Of a DNA stretch of 64,000 bases, positions 28,090-44,996 are shown piece after piece (within the stretch, counting starts at the first letter, position 1; the number at the start of each line of letters is the position of its first letter). The notes below the pieces were generated by a model. That model ran no database searches and was not told where the DNA came from. It was given only the letters and a program-made list of their open reading frames with translations. The stretch is from Actinocorallia populi (GTDB lineage Bacteria > Actinomycetota > Actinomycetes > Streptosporangiales > Streptosporangiaceae). The DNA is taken from NCBI RefSeq assembly GCF_002995495.1, contig NZ_PVZV01000004.1, forward strand, positions 496,001 through 560,000, read 5' to 3'. The position numbers and the translations under genes were made by a program.

Positions 28090-28233
28090 CCACGCACGGT
28101 GCGCCGCCAGGGACTCCGTCCCCGGACCCACCGCTCGGGAGCCCGCTCGCTACAGCGCCGCTCACTGCCGGGACATGATCCATCAGCCGATGCGCGTAGA
28201 CGTGCGGCTTGGGGACCGGAAGAATGCGGGGCC

Positions 28234-32740: not shown

Positions 32741-32760
32741 CCCAATGCTGGCGGCTCATC

Positions 32761-33120
32761 TCCATGGACGAGTCCTTCACGCCGTTCTTGGACGGGCGGA
32801 CCTTGGACGTTCTGGAAGGCCGGGGCGCAGGGGGCCGACGGGGTTTGGGGGCTCGGCCCTCAATGAGCACAGTCCCGAGCGGAGCGAGGGGCCATGCGTG
32901 TGGAAGGCGAGGGGCCTGAAGGCGGGTGGACCTCGGACGACGGCTGTCAATCGAATGATCGTTGTGCCGGATGGGCGGCGGTCGAGCTGACATGGAGCCG
33001 ACCCGAGCGACGAACCACCCCATGAACGCCACCAGCGCGCCCACGGTCGAAATCATGACCGTGCTGGTGAACGTTTGGTGCGCCGCCAGGTATTCGAACC
33101 CCGGACCCGTTGATGAAGAG
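32761..33120. repeat. tRNA-Lys att-like direct repeat, copy 1 (diverged)
   Basis: About 360 bp resembling 34311-34721 and 44559-44964 in the same orientation. It ends in a degenerate 3' part of tRNA-Lys (CGCCGCCAGGTATTCGAACC through GATGAAGAG). It is the most diverged copy, consistent with the oldest integration junction. About 30 bp beyond the tRNA part also resemble copy 2 (ACCCATGATC…TGCTGG). Confidence 0.75.
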
Positions 33121-34310: not shown

Positions 34311-34721
34311 TCGGATCGGGGACGGCCTTTCGTCCGGGTGGACGTCTCTGTCTATGGACGAGTCCTTCACCTCGTTCTTGAACGGGAGGACCCTTGACGT
34401 TCTGGAAGGCCGGGGGTGCAGGGGGCGGAGCCCCTTGCCGGGGTTCGGGGGCTCGGCCCCCGATGGGCACGGTCCCGAGCGGAGCGAGGGGCCACGCGTG
34501 CGGAGAGCGAGCCGCCCGGAAGCGGGCGGAGCCCGGATGATGGCCGTCGGCCGGTTGATCGTTTGTGCCGGACGGGCGGCGGTCGAGTCGACATGGAGCT
34601 AACCCGCCGGACGAACTACCCCATAAACGCCACCAGCGCGCCCATGATCGAAATCATGAACGCGCTGGTGAGCGGAAGGTGCGCCGCCAGGGACTCGAAC
34701 CCCGGACCCGCTGATTAAGAG
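34311..34721. repeat. tRNA-Lys att-like direct repeat, copy 2
   Basis: About 410 bp very similar to 44559-44964 over most of its length, including GC-rich hairpins near 34425-34480, the CATGAT-CGAA-ATCATG hairpin, and the 3' 41 nt of tRNA-Lys (34681-34721). Identity with the tRNA stops in the anticodon loop, as expected for a tyrosine-recombinase att site. The truncated tRNA lacks its 5' half and cannot function. Confidence 0.85.
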
Positions 34722-35001
34722 CCAGCTCCACCCATGATCAACCCATGCTGGCATTTGATCGATGATGCCGTTTGATACCTCGGTGCCCCGCATTCACACA
34801 GTTCGGCTTACCGGTGGGTGTCGCCTGCTGACAGCCGGTGCCATGGCGATGGAGCCAACATGGAGCCAACACAGGTGGCCGTGTATGGATCACGCGGCGG
34901 GTTTCTGCTAGTCACGGCGTGGCTACTGACTTTGAAGGGGTAGGTTTCCGTAGCGTCACCGGCTAATCACTTTGGTGTGTTTTCGCTGTACAACCGGTGG
35001 T

Positions 35002-35459: not shown

Positions 35460-37193
35460 ATGGCACCGCAGAGCAATGATCAACGCCTCCTGGACCGCAT
35501 CCTCGAAGATCAACGGTCCCGCCTCGCTCCCCAGCAGAAGCTTGACGCCTTCTTCAATTACTTCTCCGCGAGTGTTGCGCTACAGGACCTCGACCTAGAC
35601 ATTGACGAGTTGAGAGACGGAATTGTAGACGGCGCCCACGACTGCGGTGTCGACGGCATATGGGTTCTCGTTGATGATCGTTACGTATCCGCGGACATCG
35701 ATCGCCACACTACCCTCAGATCCAAGAAGATCGAGCTTGTAATCCTCCAGGCGAAAACCTCTCCTGGCTATCAGGAAACTGCTTTCGAGAAGCTGTATTA
35801 TCACCTGCCGATTCTGCTTGACATGGGTCGGGATATCGGAAGTTTGGCAGAGTCGACCAATGCAAAGCTGCTCGAACGTACTGGCAGATTCCTTCATGTT
35901 CTGGAGGCGCTGGCCTCATCCTTCCCTGATGTCTCCATTCGGGTAATCTACGCAACTCGCTCGGCAGAACGTCCGCATCCAAATGTAAAGGCAAAAGGAA
36001 ATAGACTCGCGCACGAACTCGGAAAGGTCTCATCTGGGACAAAGTGCGCGATCGAATATCTGGGCGCCGCTGAGCTCCGTGAACTCTCGGGTCGTGGCGC
36101 GGTCGTCGTCTCTGAACTGGTCTTCATGGATACTCCGATGAGTACGTCTCTCGGAGAGGGGTATGTGTGCCTATCGCGTCTGGACGAATACTATAAGTTC
36201 ATCACGTCGAATAATGACGCCCTGCGACTGGAGCTATTCGAGTCGAACGTCAGAGACTACGCCGGTAGGACATCGATCAACACCGCGATCGGCGAGACAC
36301 TGCGTTCCAGTCATCGAGACGACTTCTGGTGGTTCAACAATGGGGTCACGATCGTAGCCGAGGAGGTTCGCATCGCGGGCAAGAAGATCGTGATGAAGGA
36401 TCCTCAGATCGTCAACGGCCTGCAAACCAGCCATGAAATCTATAACTATTTCCAAGAGGCCGGGAATCATTACGACCGTTGCATCCTCGTGAGGATACTG
36501 GTCCCACCCACGTCTGGCAGATCACGCGACAGCATCATCAGGGCGACAAACAGTCAGACGGAGCTCCCTCCCGGAGCTCTCCGAGCCACTGAGCAGATTC
36601 AAAAGGATCTCGAGGAGTCTCTCCAGAGGGACGGCTACTATTATGAGAGGCGCGCAAACTACTACAAGAACCTGGGTTTCCTGCTGGATCAGGTTGTCAG
36701 CATGTCCCGCCTCTCAAGGGAGTTCACTGCATTCGTCATAGGCGAACCGCATTCGGCTCTCAGTTGCTCGGACAGCAGCCTGCTGGCGGACTCCCACTAC
36801 TACAAGGTCTTCTCTGCGGATCATGACCTGGACCTATACCGCCTAGTTCTCGACGTCCATGTCCGGATCGGCGAGTTTTTGACATCATACGCTGAAGACA
36901 ATCCGCTCCTGGGCGACACAGCAGAGAACTGGCGCTTCCACCTGGCCTACATGTCCTCTTTCACGCTGACACGCCTACGCAGACCCTCGCACAAAGACCT
37001 GTTGAACATCAACAGGGAGAACTTGTCCGACGACCTCTTGGAGAAGATGACGAAAATACTCGAAAAAGAGTACAGAACGGCTCTCCGAGGAAGTCGGACC
37101 GAGGGTATAGACAGGATCGCCCGAAGCTCGAGTTTCACTGACAAGATCCGTCAAGCCACCATCGCGACACGCCATTTTGGTATTCTGCGATAG
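35460..37193 (+). CDS. AIPR-family abortive-infection/phage-resistance protein with nuclease-like N-terminus
   Basis: 577 residues. The central AIPR signature is clear near residues 282-330: DDFWWFNNGVTIVAEEVRI, then DPQIVNGLQTSHEIYNYF. The N-terminal third has GVDGIWVLVDD (Asp65) and IELVILQAKTS (Gln97-x-Lys99), the D…QxK pattern of Mrr-like PD-(D/E)xK nucleases. AIPR proteins are associated with abortive infection and phage resistance. The gene is intact, stands alone, and is visibly less GC-rich with rarer codons than its surroundings, so it was probably acquired. Nuclease activity is inferred, not shown. Confidence 0.85.
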   Translation: MAPQSNDQRLLDRILEDQRSRLAPQQKLDAFFNYFSASVALQDLDLDIDELRDGIVDGAHDCGVDGIWVLVDDRYVSADIDRHTTLRSKKIELVILQAKTSPGYQETAFEKLYYHLPILLDMGRDIGSLAESTNAKLLERTGRFLHVLEALASSFPDVSIRVIYATRSAERPHPNVKAKGNRLAHELGKVSSGTKCAIEYLGAAELRELSGRGAVVVSELVFMDTPMSTSLGEGYVCLSRLDEYYKFITSNNDALRLELFESNVRDYAGRTSINTAIGETLRSSHRDDFWWFNNGVTIVAEEVRIAGKKIVMKDPQIVNGLQTSHEIYNYFQEAGNHYDRCILVRILVPPTSGRSRDSIIRATNSQTELPPGALRATEQIQKDLEESLQRDGYYYERRANYYKNLGFLLDQVVSMSRLSREFTAFVIGEPHSALSCSDSSLLADSHYYKVFSADHDLDLYRLVLDVHVRIGEFLTSYAEDNPLLGDTAENWRFHLAYMSSFTLTRLRRPSHKDLLNINRENLSDDLLEKMTKILEKEYRTALRGSRTEGIDRIARSSSFTDKIRQATIATRHFGILR

Positions 37194-37514
37194 CTGCCCG
37201 AATATCGGTCATATATCGAAAGTTCCTGCAGAGGGTCGAATCTCCTCTTGTTGTCCTTCGCTCTGGGGTGGAGCCCTATGAGGGCTTGCACCAAGGTCGA
37301 GGTTAGTCAAGCCTGTACGGGCCGGGCGCATGGGCTAATTCTCTTAATGGGCCGACGCTTCTCTCTTCTTCCCGTGGATTCCGCGGACTCCGTCCCGCGA
37401 CGGTCGGACACGTCTACGTATAAGAGTTTCGGAAGAACGCGCTCTTCGAGGGCCCTGAGGAGAAGCTGGGCCAGCGGATGGATTGCTGGCCCAGCTCCAT
37501 GGAAGGCTGCTGGT
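37194..37514. other. Non-coding stretch with no recognisable feature
   Basis: About 320 bp follow the AIPR gene. Frames on both strands are short or compositionally unlike protein, and I see no RNA gene, clear hairpin terminator or repeat. The base composition is mixed, consistent with a junction of fragments of different origin. Confidence 0.4.
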
Positions 37515-38006
37515 TCACGGTGGCGGAGCGGGTGGGGGCTTCCTCGTGGTGAGGTCGCATTCGATGCTGGTGATGCGGTCGAGGGTGCCGGTGGTGAGTT
37601 CTGCGGTCCAGGCCTTGTGCCAGTGGGTGTTGCTGGCGGTGAGGTCGGCGACGTAGCAGTTGGTCATCTCGTAGAAGGCCCGGACGCCGTGGTCCTTCAT
37701 GTAGGTCCAGTTGAACTGGAGGGAGCGGAGGGCGATGGAGAAGGGGCGTTCGACGATGCCGCGTGCCCAGCGTTCGGACTGGTCTGCGATGTCGAGACGG
37801 GCGGCGCGTTCGTCGAGGATGCTCTACATGCCGCTGATGTCATACTCGATGAGGACCTTGTCCAGGAGGTCTGTGGCGGCGTGGAGGTTGGTGTTCTTGA
37901 AGACGAAGAGGCGCTCGACCTTGGTGTGGGCGGCCTCGGCCGGCTCTTTGCAGGAGGTGTCGATCGCCTGCTTGAGCTGGACGGCGTAGGCCGCTTCCCA
38001 CGGCAT
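37515..38006 (-). pseudogene. Broken unknown gene with in-frame TAG
   Basis: The frame from 38006 reads MPWEAAYAVQLKQAIDTSCK and continues to KVLIEYDISGM, then TAG at 37824-37826. It resumes in the same frame with SILDERAARLDIADQSERWA and ends in TLDRITSIECDLTTRKPPP. Both parts look like genuine protein, so one nonsense change has split a gene of about 163 codons or more. The frame is also continuous with the small membrane ORF upstream through a TAA. No family is recognised. Confidence 0.55.
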
Positions 38007-38054
38007 GTGCTCGCCGAACGTGGCACAGGGGGTCGGGAATCCTCCATCGGCCCC

Positions 38055-38321
38055 TTACCGGAGGACACATGCAACGACTTGTCTGTCTCGGTACTTTCCG
38101 AAAAGGCTCTTCTCCACGATCGTTGTCTGTCTCCACGCGTATGCCGGGGATGGACAGATCTCCGCATACGGCATGATGTTGCCCGGCGCTCCGCGCTCCC
38201 CCACTTCCCCGTCGAACATGCCGGTCACATTGCCGAAGTACAGGGCTAGCGCGACCCCGGCAAGAGCGCTCAAAAGGCAGGCGAACGGGGTGACAAACGG
38301 ATGCACTCGTCTTGTCGACAT
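38055..38321 (-). CDS. Possible small membrane protein or first part of a broken gene
   Basis: 88 residues from ATG with one membrane segment (FACLLSALAGVALALYFG), then an extracytoplasmic-looking tail. It ends at TAA (38055-38057) in the same frame as the broken gene that follows. It could be a real small membrane protein, or the N-terminus of that gene before a second nonsense change. No family is recognised. Confidence 0.35.
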   Translation of the reverse strand: MSTRRVHPFVTPFACLLSALAGVALALYFGNVTGMFDGEVGERGAPGNIMPYAEICPSPAYAWRQTTIVEKSLFGKYRDRQVVACVLR

Positions 38322-38541
38322 GCCGGAACGCTAACGATAATTGTGCCAGAACCTCGGCACCGTGTCTGTTCTGCGGCACAGTCGTTACGGCGGACAAGTC
38401 GGAATCGGTACCCCTCAAGTACGCCATGCTCTCTGAGCTTCCCCTAGAGTGCGGACATCATCCTTGCGGCCTGCATGGGCTGCCACGATCACCGGATGTT
38501 GGTCACGTAACGGTTTTTGTTTTTGCTGATGTGCACGGTCC

Positions 38542-39150
38542 TCACTGCCAGGTGCCGTCGACTAGATCGCTGGGGACGATGTCGTGGGCTGCGAGGCGGC
38601 GGTTGATCTCTTCCCACTCGCGGATGACGCGGCGTTTGCCGTCCGGAATGGTGAGCCAGTTGGTCCTGGTAACGGGTTGTCCATGATATTCCGGTTCCCA
38701 GCCGAGCGCGTAGAAGCCGCCGAGGCCGGGGGTTTGGATTTTGAGGGCGTGGACGGTGCGGCGGTGGAACCACTTGCTGACGGCGGTGATCTTTAGTCCG
38801 GCAGCGAGGGCCTCGTGGATGAAGGGCGCGGCGTTCTCGACGTTCTGCCAGGTGTTGGCGGAGGCGTCTTCGACGCGGATGTCCTCGTCGGGGACACCGT
38901 TCTCGGTGAGGACACGATGGAATTCACGGCCTTCGATGATGCCGGTGTGTCGGTTCACGCCGCCAGTGACGATGATCAGGGGAGCCAAGCCGCGTTTATG
39001 GCGTTCGGTGACGAGGACCGTGACGGGCATGAGTTGGTTGGTGCCGAAGATGAAGTGTGCGGTGGGCAGGTCGTCGGGCGGTGGGGCTTGGATGTCGACG
39101 AAGGCGGTGATGGCAGCGGCTTGTTCGGCGGAGATCTCTCTGTCGGACAT
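38542..39150 (-). CDS. YdcF/DUF218-like protein
   Basis: 202 residues. DUF218 features are visible: FIFGTNQLMPVTVLVTERHK, PLIIVTGGVNRHTG, GREFHRVLTENGVPDEDIRV, EDASANTWQNVENA. The family includes YdcF, which binds S-adenosylmethionine, and ElyC/SanA envelope proteins. This one has no membrane anchor, so it is more YdcF-like. Its ATG lies 2 nt past the stop of the XRE-TPR frame, so the pair form an operon divergent from the radical SAM operon. The SAM link to a radical SAM enzyme next door is suggestive only. Confidence 0.75.
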   Translation of the reverse strand: MSDREISAEQAAAITAFVDIQAPPPDDLPTAHFIFGTNQLMPVTVLVTERHKRGLAPLIIVTGGVNRHTGIIEGREFHRVLTENGVPDEDIRVEDASANTWQNVENAAPFIHEALAAGLKITAVSKWFHRRTVHALKIQTPGLGGFYALGWEPEYHGQPVTRTNWLTIPDGKRRVIREWEEINRRLAAHDIVPSDLVDGTWQ

Positions 39151-39152
39151 TT

Positions 39153-40445
39153 TCAGTAGTCCTCTGGGCAGCTGCTGAGCTGGGCGGAGACCTCACGGTA
39201 CCGAGCGCCGAAAGTGGATGCCATCTGTCCTGCCCGGGACGCGGTAAGCGTCCGATCGAGTTGCCTGGCCAGCGCCATCGTCGACCAGACGGGACGATCG
39301 ATGTTGAGCGCGGTGAGCCCGGTTTCGGCGGCTTGGTCGAGGTCTCCTGTTCCGGCTTGGGCCAAGCCGAGGATGAGCAGAGAGCGCGCGTACCCGGAGG
39401 GGTTACCGCCGCCTTACTGGCGGCTTTCGTTCACGTAGCAGCTTTGGATGACGCGTCGGGTGGCTGCTGCGGCTTCCCAGTACTGGTCGGCGAGGAGTAG
39501 AGAAGTTGCGGTGTAGGGAGGGTCTTCGGCGAGGTTGATGGAATACACGCCGGTCGTTGGAGCATCGGTCGGGAGCGCTTTGATCGCAGCGGCCGCGTGG
39601 CATCGGGTCTCGGCCGAGGCGTCGGCGTCTCCGGCCATCGTGGTGGCTCGCATCTGATGGGCGGCGAGTCGGGCATGTGCCACGGTACCCAGGGGTGCTT
39701 TCCGCAGTCCTTTGGCGGCGAGGGCTGCGGATTGGCGGGGGAGTCGTTGGTAGTGGGCGATCATCGCTCTGGTGAGGTAGGCCCATCCAGCGAGCTCAGG
39801 GTGTCTGGCCTGCTCGCTGTAGCGTTCGGCGTCCGAGCACCACAGCCGTGCTGAGGAGTGTTCTCCCATGTCGTGGGCGGCGACCGCCAGGAGCCCGGAC
39901 AGCCAGCCGCAGATGAGGGCGAGGTCGGTTTTGCGCGGTGTCGTATTGGAGCGCTGGAGGACGGAACCGGCGTAGGAGCGGACGGCCAGCAGCTCGTCAT
40001 AGGCGGTGCTGGGCGGGAGCAGGGGGACCGCCTGGGCGTAGTGGTCGACGAGTTCGCCGAGTCCGTCGGTGAGGGTGCCGATGTGGCCGTCTCCGATGAT
40101 GTCCATGGCTCGGACGACGGCTGGGAGCGTGGTCAGGGCGAGTCCTCGTGCGAGGAAGCCTCTGCGCAGCACGTCACTCACCTCTTCCCATCGGTCGGGC
40201 CTGCGCTGGGAGGACGGGACCGGTTCGCACAGGTCGCCGACCTCGACGCCGAGCGCCAGTGCGAGGGCGACCAGCCAGTCGTCCGGGGTGCGGCGTCCAG
40301 TTTCCCATCGGTAGACGTAGTTGGCGGTCACGGTCGCTGTCCCGGTCAGCTCGCGGAGTTTCGCAGCGAGAGCGGCCTGCGACATTCCGGCCTGTATTCG
40401 GTGGAGTTTCAGTCGGGCCGGTGAGAAGGAGAGCCGGGGGTCCAC
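39153..40445 (-). pseudogene. XRE-TPR regulator interrupted by an in-frame TAA
   Basis: From GTG at 40445 (GGGAAGGGA upstream) the product starts with a Cro/C1 HTH (LKLHRIQAGMSQAALAAKLR, YVYRWETGRRTPDDWLVALA). A TPR-like helical region typical of actinomycete XRE-TPR regulators follows. The frame stops at TAA (39414-39416) after YVNESRQ, but continues in the same frame with NPSGYARSLLILGLAQAGTG and LDQAAETGLTALNIDRPVWS to 39153. The last about 87 residues are thus cut off by a single nonsense codon. The 343-residue product may retain DNA binding. Confidence 0.75.
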
Positions 40446-40473
40446 CTGCGAGTCCCTTCCCGTTGAGGATGCC

Positions 40474-40499
40474 TGCCAGCTGCCTGCCTGAGGCTGGCA
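40474..40499. promoter_or_regulatory. Inverted repeat in divergent promoter of the cassette
   Basis: TGCCAGC and GCTGGCA, separated by 12 bp, lie between the divergent XRE-TPR and radical SAM genes. This is a candidate operator for the XRE-TPR regulator controlling both operons. Confidence 0.4.
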
Positions 40500-40587
40500 G
40501 ATTCCATGATGCACGCCGTAGCGGTTCGGTTACCGGTGAACGCCCTACCGAATGCCCTGCCGAGGCAGGCGAGCCAGGAGGCAACCG

Positions 40588-41799
40588 ATGCCATCGTCCG
40601 AGCGGAAGAGAACCGTCGGCGAGTCACTCGATCAGCCGAGGCGCGGCGATCGCGTGCCGCTGTTGTCCGTGGAGGCGGTTGCTGCACTTCCGTCCCGTGC
40701 CCGGGAGGTGGTGGAGTACCGCAAGTCGGGTCTGTCCTTGAACCACGTACAGGGCTGCCCGCTGGACTGCGCCTACTGCATCAGGCACACCTACGGGCTG
40801 TGGGACTCCCGCCAGCCGCGCGCCCTCATGTCTGATGCGGAAGCGGTCGAGCAACTCGTCAACCACCGCTACTTCCAGGCGGACATCACGCCGGTTCAGA
40901 TCTTCAACCGGGCGACCGACCCGTTCCTTCCCAAGGTGAAGGAGCACCTGTTCGCGTGCCTGGAGGACCTGGACGGCCGGGGCCTGACGAACCACGTTCT
41001 GGTGATCACCAGGTTCCGTGTGACGGAGTCTGACTACGAGCGCCTGCAAGGGCTGGTGAATCTGAAGGTGACGCTGCTGTTCACCTATTCGGGGATCGAT
41101 GACGAGAAGATCGAGCCGTTCCCCTCGACCGTCGCCGCGGATTCGATGATCCTGGCGAGTGGCTACCGGCCCCGTCGGTTCCGGACGGTCTTCTACTGGC
41201 GGCCGCTGGTGCCCGGCCTCAACGACACCCCCGAGCACCTGGCGCGGGCGGCTGAGCTGTCCAAGCATGCCGACGCGGCCGTGTTCACGGGCCTCTTCTA
41301 CCGGAACGAGATCGCGGACTACTACAAGGCGAACGGGCTCCCGGAGCCCTACCAGGGGACGGCGCGGCGGAAGATCGTGCCGGAGACGCTGGAACAGCGC
41401 GTGCTGGAAGCGTTCGCCAAGACCGAGCACGCTGCGACGCTCTTCCGCAAGACCTCCTGCGCGGTCTCCTACGCACACGGCCTGCCCGACTACAACGGGC
41501 ACTTCGGCATCCGAGAGCTGTGCGACATCTGCCCGGTTCGCCAACTCCAGCTTTGCGCGGACGCCCACCGAGTCCCGACAGCGAGCCAACTGCAAGAAGC
41601 CACCGCCGGCCTGCCGGAAGCGGCAGGGTTGCAGGTGCTCGACGTCACCGAACGGGCCGCACGAGTGGAGGGCCTCGCGGACGAGCAACCGCGGTACTTC
41701 CTCCAGCACAAATTCGCCTTCCAGATCCACGACGCCGGGCACCCACACCTGCTGCACCGCCACAGACGCGCCGAGATCGGATGGGAACAGACCTCATGA
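40588..41799 (+). CDS. Radical SAM enzyme, spore-photoproduct-lyase-like
   Basis: 403 residues. ATG at 40588 has AGGAGG upstream. The [4Fe-4S]-SAM motif is GCPLDCAYC (Cys57, Cys61, Cys64), followed by YGLWDSRQPR. The barrel core resembles the SPL-type radical SAM family (HVLVITRFRVTESDYERLQG, VFYWRPLVPGLNDTPEHLAR). A C-terminal CDICPVRQLQLC cluster (C-x2-C-x7-C) could hold a second iron-sulfur cluster. It starts the plus-strand operon, and its stop overlaps the exonuclease start (ATGA). The substrate is unknown; nucleic acid or nucleotide is suggested by its neighbours. Confidence 0.85.
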   Translation: MPSSERKRTVGESLDQPRRGDRVPLLSVEAVAALPSRAREVVEYRKSGLSLNHVQGCPLDCAYCIRHTYGLWDSRQPRALMSDAEAVEQLVNHRYFQADITPVQIFNRATDPFLPKVKEHLFACLEDLDGRGLTNHVLVITRFRVTESDYERLQGLVNLKVTLLFTYSGIDDEKIEPFPSTVAADSMILASGYRPRRFRTVFYWRPLVPGLNDTPEHLARAAELSKHADAAVFTGLFYRNEIADYYKANGLPEPYQGTARRKIVPETLEQRVLEAFAKTEHAATLFRKTSCAVSYAHGLPDYNGHFGIRELCDICPVRQLQLCADAHRVPTASQLQEATAGLPEAAGLQVLDVTERAARVEGLADEQPRYFLQHKFAFQIHDAGHPHLLHRHRRAEIGWEQTS

Positions 41800-42386
41800 G
41801 CACCGCATGGAGCCAGCACCGGTACGCCGTCGTCGATGTCGAGGGCAACGGCCAGCAGCCGCCCGACCTCGTAGAACTCGCCATCGTCCCCATCGCGGAA
41901 GGGGAAGTCGGCCAGGCCCGCTCGTGGCTGGTGCGGCCCCCTCGCCCGATCACCCCGATGGCCCAGCGAATCCACCGCATCACGAACGCCGAGGTCTCCA
42001 CCGCCCCTGCGATGGACGAGGTCGCGGACGAGATCCGCAAAGAACTCGACGGAGCGATCTTCGTCGCGCACAACGCGCACGTCGATCTCGGCGTCCTGAC
42101 CCGCACCCTGCCCGGATACGAACCGGCCGAGGTGGTCGACACTCTCAAGCTCGCGCGTCGACTCGTCCCCGGCCAAGTGTCCTACCGGCTGGGCTCCCTG
42201 GTCGAAGCCTTCTCGCTGGCCGCCGGTCTCGGCCAGGAGCTCCGGCCTCACCGGGCGGCCTATGACGCGCTCGTCTGCGCCCGCCTCCTGGTCCGGCTTG
42301 CGTCCCCGACGGACGAACCCGCGCTGACCTTGGCGGCACTCCTGGGAAAGGAGGCGAGGGATGACGAAGCTGAGACCCTTTTCTGA
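41796..42386 (+). CDS. DnaQ-like 3'-5' exonuclease (DEDDh)
   Basis: 196 residues with all DEDDh elements: YAVVDVEGNG (Asp, Glu), then IFVAHNAHVDLGVL (Asp), and the final HRAAYDALVCARLL (His, Asp). It resembles the proofreading epsilon subunit and stand-alone exonucleases of DNA or small RNA. It has no other domain. It overlaps the radical SAM gene by 4 bp upstream and the kinase gene by 26 bp downstream, so all three should be made together. Confidence 0.9.
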   Translation: MSTAWSQHRYAVVDVEGNGQQPPDLVELAIVPIAEGEVGQARSWLVRPPRPITPMAQRIHRITNAEVSTAPAMDEVADEIRKELDGAIFVAHNAHVDLGVLTRTLPGYEPAEVVDTLKLARRLVPGQVSYRLGSLVEAFSLAAGLGQELRPHRAAYDALVCARLLVRLASPTDEPALTLAALLGKEARDDEAETLF

Positions 42387-43017
42387 GCAGCGGCGCGGCC
42401 TGTTCGTCTCGGTGGACGGCCCGTCCGGAACGGGAAAGTCAACGATCGTCGCGCACCTGGCCGAACTTTTCACCGCTGACGGAGAAGACGTCCACACAAC
42501 CGCCGAACCGTCCGGCAGCCGGATCGGGGTGCTCGCCCGAGAGCTGACCGAGACCGTCACCGGCCCGGCGCTGGCCTGCCTGTACAGCGCGGACCGCTAC
42601 CACCACCTCGACCAGGAGATCCGACCCCGTCTGGAATCCGGACAGCTCGTCATCTGCGACCGGTACGTGCCCTCCGGTCTGGTGATGCAACGCTTCGACG
42701 GCCTCGACCCCGCCTTCCTGTGGGGCCTGAACTCCCACGCCGACCGGCCCGACCTCGCCGTCATCCTGGAAGCCCACCCGCAAACCATCGCCGAACGCCT
42801 CGCCGTCCGAGGTGCCCACAACCGGTTCCAGCTCACGCCGGGCTCCTCCCACGCTGAGACCCATTTCTACCGGCAGGCCTGTGACCGCCTCATCCGAGCC
42901 GGATACGACGTCCTGCCCATCGACTGCACCGACAAGCCCGCCGAAGAACTCGCCGCCACCATCCGCGACCGACTCCGAGCGTTCTTCGCCGTCCCGGATC
43001 AGGAGACCGTGCGATGA
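42361..43017 (+). CDS. Thymidylate kinase-like P-loop enzyme
   Basis: 218 residues. The P-loop is GPSGTGKST (residues 20-28), the DRY motif is CDRYVPSGLVMQRFDGL, and SADRYHHLDQEI matches the helix after it, as in TMP kinases. It is thus a nucleoside-monophosphate kinase, probably acting on dTMP or an analogue. A housekeeping tmk would normally lie elsewhere, next to holB, so this looks like a specialised extra copy. It is coupled to the exonuclease upstream (26-bp overlap) and the aldo/keto reductase downstream (ATGA). Confidence 0.88.
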   Translation: MTKLRPFSEQRRGLFVSVDGPSGTGKSTIVAHLAELFTADGEDVHTTAEPSGSRIGVLARELTETVTGPALACLYSADRYHHLDQEIRPRLESGQLVICDRYVPSGLVMQRFDGLDPAFLWGLNSHADRPDLAVILEAHPQTIAERLAVRGAHNRFQLTPGSSHAETHFYRQACDRLIRAGYDVLPIDCTDKPAEELAATIRDRLRAFFAVPDQETVR

Positions 43018-43853
43018 CCGAACCCGAGTCCTTCCGCATCGGCGGAGACCTCACCGTCAACCGGCTCGGCCTGGGCACGATGTCCTTCACCGGACCCGGA
43101 CACTGGGGCAAGCCGGCCGATCGGCACGAAGCCCTCCGCGTCCTGCGCCGTGCCATCGACCTCGGCGTCAACTTCATCGACACCGCCGACGCCTACGGCC
43201 CCCACACCGCCGAGAACCTGATTGCCGAAGCCCTCCACCCCTACCCGGACGAGCTCGTCATCGCCACCAAGGGTGGACTCACCCGCCAAGGCCCCAACCG
43301 GTGGGCGCCGGTCGGACGCCCCGAGTACCTACGACAGTGCGCGGAGATGAGCCTGCGCCGCCTCCGAAAGGAGACCATCGACCTCTACCAACTCCACCGC
43401 ATCGACCGGAGCGTGCCGCTCGAAGATCAGATCGGCGTCCTTGCTGAGCTGCGGACTGAAGGCAAGATCCGCCATATCGGCCTGTCCAAGGCCACCGTCA
43501 CCGATCTCGAGAACGCTCTGCAGATCAGCCCCATAGCGACAATCCAGAACCGCTACCACTTCCACGACCGGACCAGCCAGGACGTTCTCGACCGCTGCAC
43601 CGTCCTGGGCCTCGGCTTCATCCCCTACGGCCCGCTCGCCCAGGGACGACTCGCCGAGCAGCCCACCGAGACGACTGCTGTCCTCAGCGGTACGCCCAGC
43701 CAACGAGCACTGGCATGGCTCCTCGCCCAGTCGCCCGTCATGCTGCCCATCCCTGGCACTTCCAAGGTCCACCACCTGGAAGAGAACCTCCGCGCGCGAG
43801 GTGTCTACGAAGATCACAGGCTTGACCTTTCCGCACGAGATGTCCGCCCATAG
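43014..43853 (+). CDS. Aldo/keto reductase in the cassette
   Basis: 279 residues, somewhat short for the family, with the catalytic tetrad: Asp and Tyr in NFIDTADAYGPHTAENLIAE, Lys in LVIATKGGL, His in DLYQLHRIDRSV. It should be an NADPH-dependent reductase in the cytoplasm. Its start overlaps the kinase stop (ATGA), so it is a fixed member of the operon. In this setting it may reduce a product of the radical SAM enzyme or a reactive aldehyde. That link is inferred from context only. Confidence 0.9.
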   Translation: MTEPESFRIGGDLTVNRLGLGTMSFTGPGHWGKPADRHEALRVLRRAIDLGVNFIDTADAYGPHTAENLIAEALHPYPDELVIATKGGLTRQGPNRWAPVGRPEYLRQCAEMSLRRLRKETIDLYQLHRIDRSVPLEDQIGVLAELRTEGKIRHIGLSKATVTDLENALQISPIATIQNRYHFHDRTSQDVLDRCTVLGLGFIPYGPLAQGRLAEQPTETTAVLSGTPSQRALAWLLAQSPVMLPIPGTSKVHHLEENLRARGVYEDHRLDLSARDVRP

Positions 43854-43926
43854 GGGCCACAGCCGTCCGCGATATCAGGGCCGGACAGCGGCAGCGGGCG
43901 GCGCTGACACAGGAGGTACGACAAGG

Positions 43927-44406
43927 ATGATCGACAAGACGCCGGGCCATGCCTCGGCGGAGGAATGGCTGACCTGGCCGGGTGCGATGGTGTGGCGTCG
44001 CACCTTCCCGGGCAGAACCGATCAGATCCGCTGCGCACGGAACTTCGCCGCATCCCTTTTCGAGGGATCCAAGCGCCAGGAGGACGTCCGGGAGCTGGTC
44101 TCGGAGCTGGCCGCCAACGCGGTGGTGCACACGCGCTCCGGTCGGCCCGGAGGCTGGTTCGGGCTGGAGGTCATCATCGACAAGCTCGTCCGCATCGCGG
44201 TCCGTGACCTCGGCGGAGCCGGAACCCCGAACGTCCGGATCGAACTGCTCGCCGGGTCAGAGCTGTGCACCAGCGGCCGGGGCCTGTTCTTGGTCCGGGC
44301 GAAGACGGTCGGCATCGGCGTCCACGGAAGCCCCGCTCACGGGCACACCGTGTGGGCCGACATCGACTTGGACACCGAACCCGAAGCACTTCCGGGAGCC
44401 TGGTGA
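43927..44406 (+). CDS. RsbW-like ATP-binding protein
   Basis: 159 residues from ATG, with ACAAGG nearby. It is an HATPase_c_2 domain: VRELVSELAANAVVHTRSGR (N box), AVRDLGGAG (D box region) and TSGRGLFLVRAKTVG (G box). Such anti-sigma-type ATPases are often found beside XRE regulators in actinomycetes. It is 73 bp after the aldo/keto reductase gene and before a terminator, closing the plus-strand operon. It might relay a signal to the XRE-TPR protein. Confidence 0.82.
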   Translation: MIDKTPGHASAEEWLTWPGAMVWRRTFPGRTDQIRCARNFAASLFEGSKRQEDVRELVSELAANAVVHTRSGRPGGWFGLEVIIDKLVRIAVRDLGGAGTPNVRIELLAGSELCTSGRGLFLVRAKTVGIGVHGSPAHGHTVWADIDLDTEPEALPGAW

Positions 44407-44558: not shown

Positions 44559-44964
44559 TCGGATCGGGGACGGCTTTTCGTCCCGGGTGGACGTCTCTGT
44601 CTATGGACGAGTCCTTCACCTCGTTCTTGAACGGGAGGACCCTTGACGTTCTGGAAGGCCGGGGGTGCAGGGGGCGGAGCCCCTTGCCGGGGTTCGGGGG
44701 CTCGGCCCCCGATGGGCACGGTCCCGAGCGGAGCGAGGGGCCACGCGTGTGGAGAGCGAGGGCCTGAAGTGGATGGGCCTCGGGCGATGGCCGTCGGCCG
44801 AATGATCGTTTTGCCGGATGGGCGGTCGAGCCGACATGGAGCTAACCCGCCGGACGAACCACCTCGTAAACGCCACCAGCGCGCCCATGATCGAAATCAT
44901 GAACGCGCTGGTAGACGGAGAGTGCGCCGCCAGGGACTCGAACCCCGGACCCGCTGATTAAGAG
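44559..44964. repeat. tRNA-Lys att-like direct repeat, copy 3 (at intact tRNA)
   Basis: About 405 bp matching 34311-34721 closely and 32761-33120 more distantly. It runs from the flank of the island into the anticodon loop of the intact tRNA-Lys gene. It is therefore the junction where the element supplied the tRNA 3' end. Confidence 0.85.
44880..44907 (-). terminator. tRNA-Lys downstream hairpin
   Basis: Reading on the minus strand: CGCG, then CATGAT-TTCG-ATCATG, then CGCG. This is a stable UUCG-loop hairpin 16 nt beyond the tRNA 3' end. It is present in all three repeat copies, with a compensated stem in copy 1, so it is probably a functional terminator or recombination-site structure. Confidence 0.6.
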
Positions 44965-44996
44965 TCAGCTGCTCTAACCAACTGAGCTAGCGGCGC
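44923..44996 (-). tRNA. tRNA-Lys (anticodon CTT)
   Basis: A 74-nt cloverleaf: acceptor GCGCCGC/GCGGCGC with discriminator A, D arm GCTCAGTTGGTTAGAGC, anticodon stem GCTGA/TCAGC with loop CTCTTAA (anticodon CTT), T arm CGGGGTTCGAGTCCCTG. CCA is not encoded. Its 3' end borders the accessory island and is duplicated at two further sites inside it, so it is the attachment gene. Confidence 0.95.

What the first reader, a model, noticed from the sequence alone, without database searches (positions are those of the whole stretch)
38542..44406. Candidate undescribed system: XRE-TPR / YdcF / radical SAM / DEDDh exonuclease / TMP kinase / aldo-keto reductase / RsbW-like ATPase
Two divergent operons share an inverted-repeat promoter. 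The plus-strand operon has three overlaps (4, 26 and 4 bp) across four enzymes not usually encoded together: a radical SAM protein with an extra C-x2-C-x7-C cluster, a 3'-5' exonuclease, a nucleoside-monophosphate kinase and a reductase. A YdcF-type protein (a SAM-binding family) and a signalling ATPase complete it. The combination suggests production or removal of a modified nucleotide coupled to exonuclease action, such as phage defence or a nucleotide-derived metabolite. It lies in a tRNA island beside an AIPR gene.
Basis: partly seen in the sequence, partly recalled or inferred. Interest (0 to 1): 0.75.

Follow-up and report, generated by a model that had tools for sequence, protein, structure and literature searches.

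The report
Radical SAM–exonuclease–nucleotide kinase gene cassette
Bacteria of several phyla share a mobile set of three overlapping genes (a radical enzyme, a nucleotide kinase and a DNA-proofreading-type exonuclease) that looks like a kit for making a poisonous DNA or RNA building block together with the enzyme that protects its maker; what it really makes has not been shown.

Summary
The genes are real and their core is a conserved, mobile cassette. In 101 loci chosen by their radical SAM (rSAM) protein, a DEDDh exonuclease accompanies it in 99 and a P-loop kinase in 81; the aldo-keto reductase occurs in 36, while the window's XRE, YdcF and ATPase genes are not core. Plasmids of Agrobacterium and Sinorhizobium carry the trio near Gabija, Thoeris and CBASS genes. 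A variant adds a CMP-hydroxymethylase (MilA) homologue and an NDK homologue, so the chemistry concerns a nucleotide. The rSAM scores above no curated cut-off tested, has no solved relative by sequence, and has a second invariant four-cysteine motif. In two samples of 200 genomes all 51 full-length rSAM genes have the exonuclease (50 intact), but 22 of 72 intact exonucleases lack a full-length rSAM: the pattern of a toxin maker and its antidote, with exceptions elsewhere. Most exonucleases end in Leu-Phe or Leu-Trp, like a sliding-clamp-binding tail. Best reading: rSAM and kinase make a polymerase-poisoning nucleotide and the exonuclease removes it from the producer's nucleic acid. The 4'-thiothymidine genes (rSAM, kinase, triphosphatase) follow the same logic. 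Product and use (phage defence or antibiotic) are not shown.

The parts
40654..41799 (+). radical SAM enzyme of an uncharacterised family: CxxxCxxC plus a second invariant four-Cys motif (core of the cassette)
   Evidence: AlphaFold2 model pLDDT 94.2; generic rSAM folds only
41796..42386 (+). DEDDh 3'-5' exonuclease, PolC/DnaQ/ExoX-like, acidic C-terminus ending in Leu-Phe (core)
   Evidence: RNase_T 70.8 bits; nearest solved: PolC exonuclease, ExoX, DinG, DnaQ; tail
42361..43017 (+). thymidylate-kinase-family P-loop nucleotide kinase (core; the slot is held by an AAA_28-type kinase in other lineages)
   Evidence: TIGR00041 108.8 bits against cut-off 83.25; slot exchange
43014..43853 (+). aldo-keto reductase (accessory; 36 of 101 loci)
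   Evidence: Aldo_ket_red 211 bits
43927..44406 (+). RsbW-like HATPase (local neighbour, not conserved with the cassette)
39414..40514 (-). XRE/NsdA-like regulator, divergent (local; the true start may be GTG at 40445)
   Evidence: HTH_31 38 bits; NsdA 74.1 bits against cut-off 75
38542..39150 (-). YdcF/DUF218 protein (local neighbour)
   Evidence: DUF218 47 bits
40473..40500 (.). 8-bp inverted repeat in the divergent intergenic stretch (weak)
35460..37193 (+). AbiU-like (AIPR) gene in the same island, separate from the cassette
   Evidence: PADLOC AbiU 570 bits
34311..34727 (.). left copy of a 420-bp direct repeat holding a 43-base copy of the tRNA-Lys 3' end (att-like)
44559..44970 (.). right copy of the direct repeat, overlapping tRNA-Lys (44922-44996, - strand)

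Best explanation
A self-protected nucleotide-analogue operon. Step 1 (inferred): the rSAM enzyme, using its radical cluster and a second Fe-S cluster, converts a nucleoside or nucleotide into an analogue. Step 2 (inferred from family): the TMK/deoxynucleoside-kinase-fold kinase, with NDK in one variant, phosphorylates it towards the triphosphate. Step 3 (inferred): the analogue enters growing DNA (or RNA) and stalls polymerases of a phage, a competitor or the cell. Step 4 (inferred from family, tail and gene loss): the DnaQ/PolC-like exonuclease, probably held at the replication fork by a C-terminal clamp-binding tail, excises it from the producer's 3' ends and so acts as the antidote. AKR, MazG, HD or MilA-type genes tailor or control the nucleotide in variants. 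Shown here: families, conserved gene order, mobility, the MilA-type variant, and a strongly one-sided pattern of gene loss (exonuclease without rSAM far more often than the reverse).
For: Gene order: exonuclease on the rSAM's strand within 6 kb in 99 of 101 loci, directly downstream in 98; kinase in 81 of 101; stop/start overlaps. Nucleotide chemistry: the TS-like partner in 21 of 101 loci is of the MilA family (402 bits to CMP 5-hydroxymethylase, 75 to the best thymidylate synthase), with cytosine-type Asp, CMP-type Lys and Ala/Gly in 20 of 20 aligned rows (residue meaning from PMC5175136, passages); NDK in 23 of 101. The kinase slot holds two sequence-distinct kinases, TMK type in 43 and AAA_28 type in 38 loci; a model of the second matches TMK, NadR and AbmG 8j5f. 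Gene loss in two samples of 200 genomes: 51 full-length rSAM genes (24 and 27), all with an exonuclease place, 50 intact; exonuclease places without full-length rSAM 18 of 42 and 9 of 36, of which 15 and 7 are intact, so 22 of 72 intact exonucleases. 22 against 1: sign test p 6e-6, or 1e-3 if loss follows gene length. Tails: 79 of 99 exonucleases end LF or LW after a variable linker. Defence neighbours: Gabija 803/748 bits, ThsB 378, dGTPase 487, CBASS cyclase 488. Precedent: thmA-C (rSAM, kinase, triphosphatase) makes 4'-thiothymidine and thmC alone gives resistance (PMC12691670: abstract, passages, sections 7 and 19).
Against: No product, substrate or phenotype is known. In the rSAM-chosen set, 5 of 96 full-length rSAM genes lack an intact exonuclease: L111 and L038 have none, L086, L133 and L134 have it frameshifted (frameshifts may be assembly errors). 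Kinase is missing in 20 of 101 loci. MilA-type residues predict CMP, a ribonucleotide, which fits a DNA-type exonuclease poorly, and MilA's ribose-binding Tyr is replaced in 20 of 20 rows, so the substrate is uncertain. Clamp binding is inferred from the tail only. The rSAM fold points to no one function. Related places are not independent, and solitary exonucleases could be kept for another reason.
Confidence: 0.47

Rival explanations
1. DNA hypermodification: the enzymes make a modified dNTP that is built into the host's or element's own DNA as a protective mark, and the exonuclease edits misincorporation.
For: MilA/dCMP-hydroxymethylase-type and NDK partners resemble phage base-modification sets; plasmid and island location; 9 of 9 IMG/VR contigs with an rSAM relative carry the exonuclease.
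Against: Among families counted in 101 loci no DNA-modifying enzyme recurs; the exonuclease is found without the rSAM far more often than the reverse; CMP-type Lys and Ala/Gly in the TS-like enzyme.
Confidence: 0.13
2. Nucleotide or DNA damage repair: the rSAM reverses or degrades a damaged base (like spore photoproduct lyase), the exonuclease removes it and the kinase salvages it.
For: Spore photoproduct lyase 4fhc is among the nearest folds (E 2.3e-5); DnaQ/ExoX-like exonuclease.
Against: Patchy distribution (29 of 200 genomes; 25 of 200 with a match above 500 bits), mobile location and defence neighbours are unlike repair genes; the MilA-type partner makes rather than repairs a base; the SPL match is no better than that to PFL-activating enzyme.
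Confidence: 0.1
3. Antibiotic biosynthesis without a defence role: a secreted nucleoside natural product, with the exonuclease as self-resistance. (Same mechanism as the best explanation, other use.)
For: 4'-thiothymidine precedent; MilA comes from mildiomycin biosynthesis; lanthipeptide-type genes near some loci (match to an FxLD-type methyltransferase, named from recall, in 15 of 101 loci; Lant_dehydr in 2 of 90 sampled flanking proteins).
Against: No transporter was among the recurrent neighbours named (not searched for by itself); alphaproteobacterial copies looked at sit with defence systems.
Confidence: 0.22
4. Viperin-like RNA-directed antiviral: rSAM acts on CMP/CTP and the triphosphate stops RNA polymerases.
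For: CMP-type residues of the TS-like partner; viperin among the weaker fold matches (5vsl E 1.5e-3); kinase of the TMK family, as CMPK2 beside animal viperin (recalled).
Against: No viperin-named match in Pfam, NCBIfam or PADLOC; best exonuclease matches are DNA-polymerase or DNA exonucleases; clamp-like tail.
Confidence: 0.15

Closest known systems
4'-thiothymidine cluster thmA-C of Photorhabdus asymbiotica (PMC12691670; abstract, passages, sections 7 and 19 seen)
   Same: three adjacent genes: rSAM, nucleoside kinase, and an enzyme that protects the producer; product is incorporated into DNA and blocks replication
   Different: protection there is a nucleoside triphosphatase, not an exonuclease; the paper reports it in gamma-proteobacteria; homology of ThmA to this rSAM could not be tested (no ThmA sequence at hand)
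Prokaryotic viperins (recalled; search listings only)
   Same: rSAM with CxxxCxxC; nucleotide substrate; defence role; often a nucleotide kinase nearby (recalled)
   Different: no viperin family match; second four-Cys motif; exonuclease partner
Albomycin thionucleoside enzymes AbmM/AbmG (as told in PMC12691670; AbmG structure 8j5f)
   Same: rSAM plus deoxynucleoside-kinase-fold kinase; AAA_28-type kinase model matches AbmG at E 1.7e-5
   Different: fold-level match only, ranked below thymidylate kinases; AbmM not compared
MilA / CMP 5-hydroxymethylase (5jnh, 5b6d; PMC5175136, passages seen)
   Same: the TS-like partner in 21 of 101 loci belongs here by score and by most active-site residues
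   Different: not present in the window's cassette; ribose-binding Tyr replaced
DNA polymerase III epsilon (DnaQ), PolC exonuclease domain, ExoX
   Same: DEDDh fold and catalytic residues; clamp-type tail in DnaQ (recalled)
   Different: stand-alone 190-200-aa protein encoded with an rSAM and a kinase

Membership tests
radical SAM superfamily | CxxxCxxC motif and partial TIM barrel | tested here: met
   motif Cys in at least 90% of 72 rows; Foldseek to PFL-AE, SkfB, SPL at E 3.7e-6 to 2.3e-5; the Pfam score 22.9 is below its cut-off 29.5
prokaryotic viperin | match to a viperin family model | tested here: not met
   PADLOC 0 families, NCBIfam 0, Pfam Radical_SAM only; that PADLOC 2.0.0 holds viperin models is recalled
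prokaryotic viperin | converts an NTP to a 3'-deoxy-3',4'-didehydro-NTP | not testable with these tools
   needs enzymology
thm (4'-thiothymidine) type cluster | rSAM and nucleoside/nucleotide kinase adjacent, with a protective enzyme | tested here: inconclusive
   rSAM and kinase in 81 of 101 loci; the candidate protective enzyme is of another family, protection not shown
thm (4'-thiothymidine) type cluster | rSAM homologous to ThmA | not tested
dTMP kinase | TIGR00041 above cut-off | tested here: met
   108.8 bits against 83.25, window protein
DEDDh exonuclease | Asp, Glu, Asp, His, Asp catalytic set | tested here: met
   D14, E16, D115, H152, D157 invariant in the 25 rows of A4
CMP hydroxymethylase (MilA), for the TS-like partner of other loci | catalytic Cys, cytosine-type Asp, CMP-type Lys and Ala | tested here: met
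   C146, N177D, R126K in 20 of 20 rows; S167 to Ala or Gly in 20 of 20
CMP hydroxymethylase (MilA), for the TS-like partner of other loci | ribose-binding His and Tyr | tested here: not met
   His kept in 20 of 20, Tyr (ThyA Y209, MilA Y218) replaced in 20 of 20: family by score, substrate open
known anti-phage system in PADLOC-DB 2.0.0 | rSAM, exonuclease and kinase match one system | tested here: not met
   rSAM 0 families; exonuclease matches CRISPR-associated DEDDh and PDC-S48; kinase PDC-M51B 44.7 bits
known anti-phage system | protects against phage | not testable with these tools
   needs plaque assays

The most novel reading that the evidence does not exclude
A widespread mobile chemical defence in which a new rSAM family makes a polymerase-poisoning nucleotide and a clamp-tethered, stand-alone proofreading exonuclease is the dedicated antidote: proofreading used as self-immunity.
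Probability: 0.31. Interest if true: 0.87.

Novelty: new variant of a known kind. Interest (0 to 1): 0.72.

Why it matters
It would be a nucleotide-analogue system whose antidote is a dedicated proofreading exonuclease rather than a triphosphatase. One scan of a genome collection found 275 stretches that encode a relative of the rSAM, and alphaproteobacterial and Streptomyces plasmids carry the cassette. It points to an unexplored rSAM family that may make new nucleosides, and the question 'is the exonuclease the antidote?' can be tested directly with three small genes in laboratory hosts. The paper searches made here (open-licence PMC papers only) listed no description of this cassette.

Tried and rejected
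Viperin membership: no family match. XRE, YdcF and HATPase as system parts: not conserved. Inverted-repeat promoter: weak. Canonical thymidylate synthase for the TS-like partner: rejected for the MilA family. One kinase family throughout: rejected, two share the slot. Repeated swapping of the kinase: the rSAM tree of 99 rows puts all 43 TMK rows in one clade of 52 rows (support 100/99) with no AAA_28 row, so one exchange suffices. Defence enrichment in Actinomycetota: 90 of 120 flanking proteins and 90 of 158 control proteins were scanned; type I restriction, Cas10/Cas7, AbiLi and two mad3 matches against a protein-kinase set (PD-T4-6, mad6, PglW), MkoA and others; PD-T4-6 and mad6 occur in both; only 25 of 55 and 25 of 30 families were shown, so this is suggestive only. 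Relatives in the 'phages' collection: none. A weaker rSAM group (25-28% identity) on Streptomyces plasmids has other neighbours (one locus seen). Copies L043-L045 and L047-L052 were dropped before the 101-locus counts. A first count of the gene-loss pattern (54 of 54 against 25 of 79) was withdrawn: three long rSAM matches lack their N-terminus, one place is cut by a contig end and one exonuclease is frameshifted; confidence was lowered from 0.50 to 0.47 and the novel case from 0.33 to 0.31 for this. The first extraction of rSAM proteins misread minus-strand loci and was replaced.


Full report
WHAT IS THERE. Families: DUF218/YdcF; XRE with NsdA-like region (just under the NsdA cut-off); radical SAM (below the Pfam cut-off); DEDDh exonuclease; dTMP kinase (above the TIGR00041 cut-off); aldo-keto reductase; HATPase (below the Pfam cut-offs). 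A second tmk-like gene lies elsewhere in the genome. The genes sit in an island: tRNA-Lys at 44922-44996, a 43-base perfect copy of its 3' end at 34679-34721, and a 420-bp direct repeat of 92.9% identity on both sides (34311-34727, 44559-44970), with a third, 82% copy at 32749-33120. G+C is 0.635 in the island against 0.70 and 0.71 in the stretches compared outside. The AIPR gene in the island is an AbiU homologue.

THE CORE IS THREE GENES. In a sample of 200 genomes of the window's family, 29 have an rSAM match. One scan of the genome collection found 275 stretches that encode a relative; the best 80 were kept. Plasmid records: 39 with a match, of 30 listed 24 at 46-55% identity (Streptomyces, Nocardia, rhizobia, Labrenzia/Roseibium, Gluconobacter, Nostoc; several are copies of one plasmid) and 6 at 25-29%. 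In 101 loci (window, 9 plasmid loci, 91 genome loci; all chosen by the rSAM) the exonuclease is present on the same strand in 99, directly downstream in 98, the kinase in 81, AKR in 36, NDK in 23, TS-like in 21, MazG in 5. Choosing the start codon nearest a 4-bp overlap gives -4 in 54 and -8 in 22 of 99 rSAM-exonuclease junctions (this choice leans towards overlap). XRE, YdcF and HATPase are local: any XRE match within 6 kb in 13, YdcF in 1, HATPase in 2 of 101.

THE rSAM looks like a family of its own. No NCBIfam or PADLOC family matches the window protein, a profile search of PDB sequences gives nothing (best E 0.18), and a high-confidence model (pLDDT 94.2) matches only generic rSAM folds: PFL-activating enzyme, SkfB, spore photoproduct lyase, NifB, biotin synthase, viperin (viral library likewise). 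Four further Cys are invariant in the 72 sequences of A2, suggesting a second Fe-S cluster. Four Cys ligands are more usual for an electron-relay cluster, three for a sulfur donor (recalled), so sulfur insertion is neither shown nor excluded.

NUCLEOTIDE CHEMISTRY. The kinase slot holds a TMK-family kinase in 43 loci and an AAA_28 kinase in 38. A model of the second (pLDDT 93.6) has the TMK/NadR/deoxynucleoside-kinase fold and also matches AbmG of albomycin biosynthesis. The window-type TMK (66% identity or more) occurs in 8 of 200 family genomes, in all 8 beside the rSAM. The TS-like partner of 21 loci is a CMP 5-hydroxymethylase (MilA) homologue by score (402 against 75 bits). Its residues at the catalytic Cys, the cytosine Asp and the CMP-type Lys and Ala/Gly agree with MilA in 20 of 20 rows, but MilA's ribose-binding Tyr is replaced in 20 of 20 (criteria from PMC5175136, passages). 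A cytosine nucleotide is likely for that variant; CMP rather than dCMP is open.

TOXIN-ANTIDOTE PATTERN. I call an rSAM full-length if one frame covers the profile from position 13 or earlier to 370 or later, and an exonuclease intact if one frame covers it to 169 or later (of 196). First sample (200 genomes of the window's family): 24 full-length rSAM genes, all with an exonuclease beside them, 23 intact; in the one exception (G004:C47, the same locus as L086) the exonuclease is frameshifted near its C-terminus. Of 42 exonuclease places 18 lack a full-length rSAM: 3 beside an rSAM without its N-terminus, 4 beside a broken one, 11 without a match; 15 of these 18 exonucleases are intact. A further long rSAM match (G146) lacks its N-terminus and is followed by an exonuclease fragment. 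Of the 11, L154 keeps a kinase fragment and L160 and L162 keep in-frame rSAM tails, read by eye. Second sample (200 genomes around Saccharopolyspora): 27 full-length rSAM genes, 27 intact exonucleases; of 36 exonuclease places (one more, G385, is cut by a contig end and left out) 9 lack a full-length rSAM, 7 of them intact (by eye; 12 of the 37 places and one rSAM without an intact exonuclease, G389, itself broken, were fetched and scanned). Together: 1 of 51 full-length rSAM genes lacks an intact exonuclease, 22 of 72 intact exonucleases lack a full-length rSAM. Sign test p 6e-6; if loss followed gene length (about 2:1, rSAM the longer) 1e-3; places are related by descent, so this is a guide only. 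In the rSAM-chosen set of 101 the exceptions are more: 5 of 96 full-length rSAM genes lack an intact exonuclease (L038 and L111 none; L086, L133, L134 frameshifted). rSAM and exonuclease co-occur in genomes of the first sample with Fisher p 8e-21 (26, 3, 11, 160).

THE TAIL. Of 99 exonucleases 46 end in LF, 33 in LW, 6 in LL and 4 in FL; 8 of the other 10 have LF a few residues earlier. The linker before it varies and is often acidic or Q-rich. This resembles beta-clamp-binding tails (recalled; not tested) and would place the enzyme at replication forks.

CONTEXT. Agrobacterium plasmid: GajA/GajB, dGTPase, ThsB; Sinorhizobium: CBASS cyclase and phospholipase; Mesorhizobium: HamB-like helicase; Labrenzia: type IIG-like enzyme (8 neighbours chosen because their annotation looked like defence, plus the HD protein, weakly dGTPase-like, and the kinase, no match). 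Actinomycete flanks give only a weak excess of defence matches over control and include regulators (DUF6879 near 41 of 80 loci without and 2 of 21 with the TS-like gene) and lanthipeptide-type genes. All 9 IMG/VR contigs with a relative carry the exonuclease, 7 the kinase and 7 the TS-like and NDK genes; whether these contigs are viral was not tested. Short tree paths between rSAM proteins of different actinomycete families (L085, L089, L091, L092, L103) indicate recent transfer.

READING. The nearest described logic is the thm cluster of Photorhabdus (PMC12691670): rSAM, kinase and a triphosphatase that alone confers resistance; the product enters DNA. Here the protective slot would be an exonuclease. 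I rate 'nucleotide analogue plus antidote exonuclease' at 0.47, with the use (phage defence or antibiotic) open. Function, substrate and product are all inferred.

Noticed in passing
window 32749-33120, 34311-34727, 44559-44970, 28099-28129: Three copies (82-93% identical) of a ~400-bp block that includes the tRNA-Lys 3' end, plus a 31-bp piece, suggest serial integration at this tRNA; I noticed no integrase in the ORF lists of the stretch, but did not search for one.
   Followed up: partly
window 35460-37193: AIPR gene is a full-length AbiU homologue (PADLOC 570 bits), G+C 0.544, well below its surroundings.
   Followed up: partly
window 37250-38430: Overlapping low-quality ORFs on both strands between AbiU and YdcF look like decayed genes.
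   Followed up: no
L035, L078, L112, L115: A DUF5131 (Gp37/Gp68-type) homologue lies near the cassette in four loci, with TcmP in L035: possibly another rSAM-type defence candidate.
   Followed up: no
L112, L115: Very similar rSAM cassettes in MAGs labelled Nitrospirales and Acidobacteriota: recent transfer or binning error.
   Followed up: no
L040:5822-7387: The MilA-like protein is fused to GntR-type DNA-binding domains (two matched stretches), an odd regulator-enzyme fusion.
   Followed up: no
L035:10310-11746, L036:10310-11740: HD-domain protein with weak dGTPase similarity (tested for L035) directly after the kinase in two alphaproteobacterial plasmids; a possible alternative antidote.
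   Followed up: no
L063-L105 (e.g. L075:7207-7482, L096:7576-8001): Small genes (DUF6879 and a ~91-aa protein) lie near the rSAM in about half of the loci without the TS-like gene.
   Followed up: partly
L086, L133, L134: Exonuclease gene split by a frameshift beside a full-length rSAM gene; sequencing error or real loss, not resolved.
   Followed up: partly
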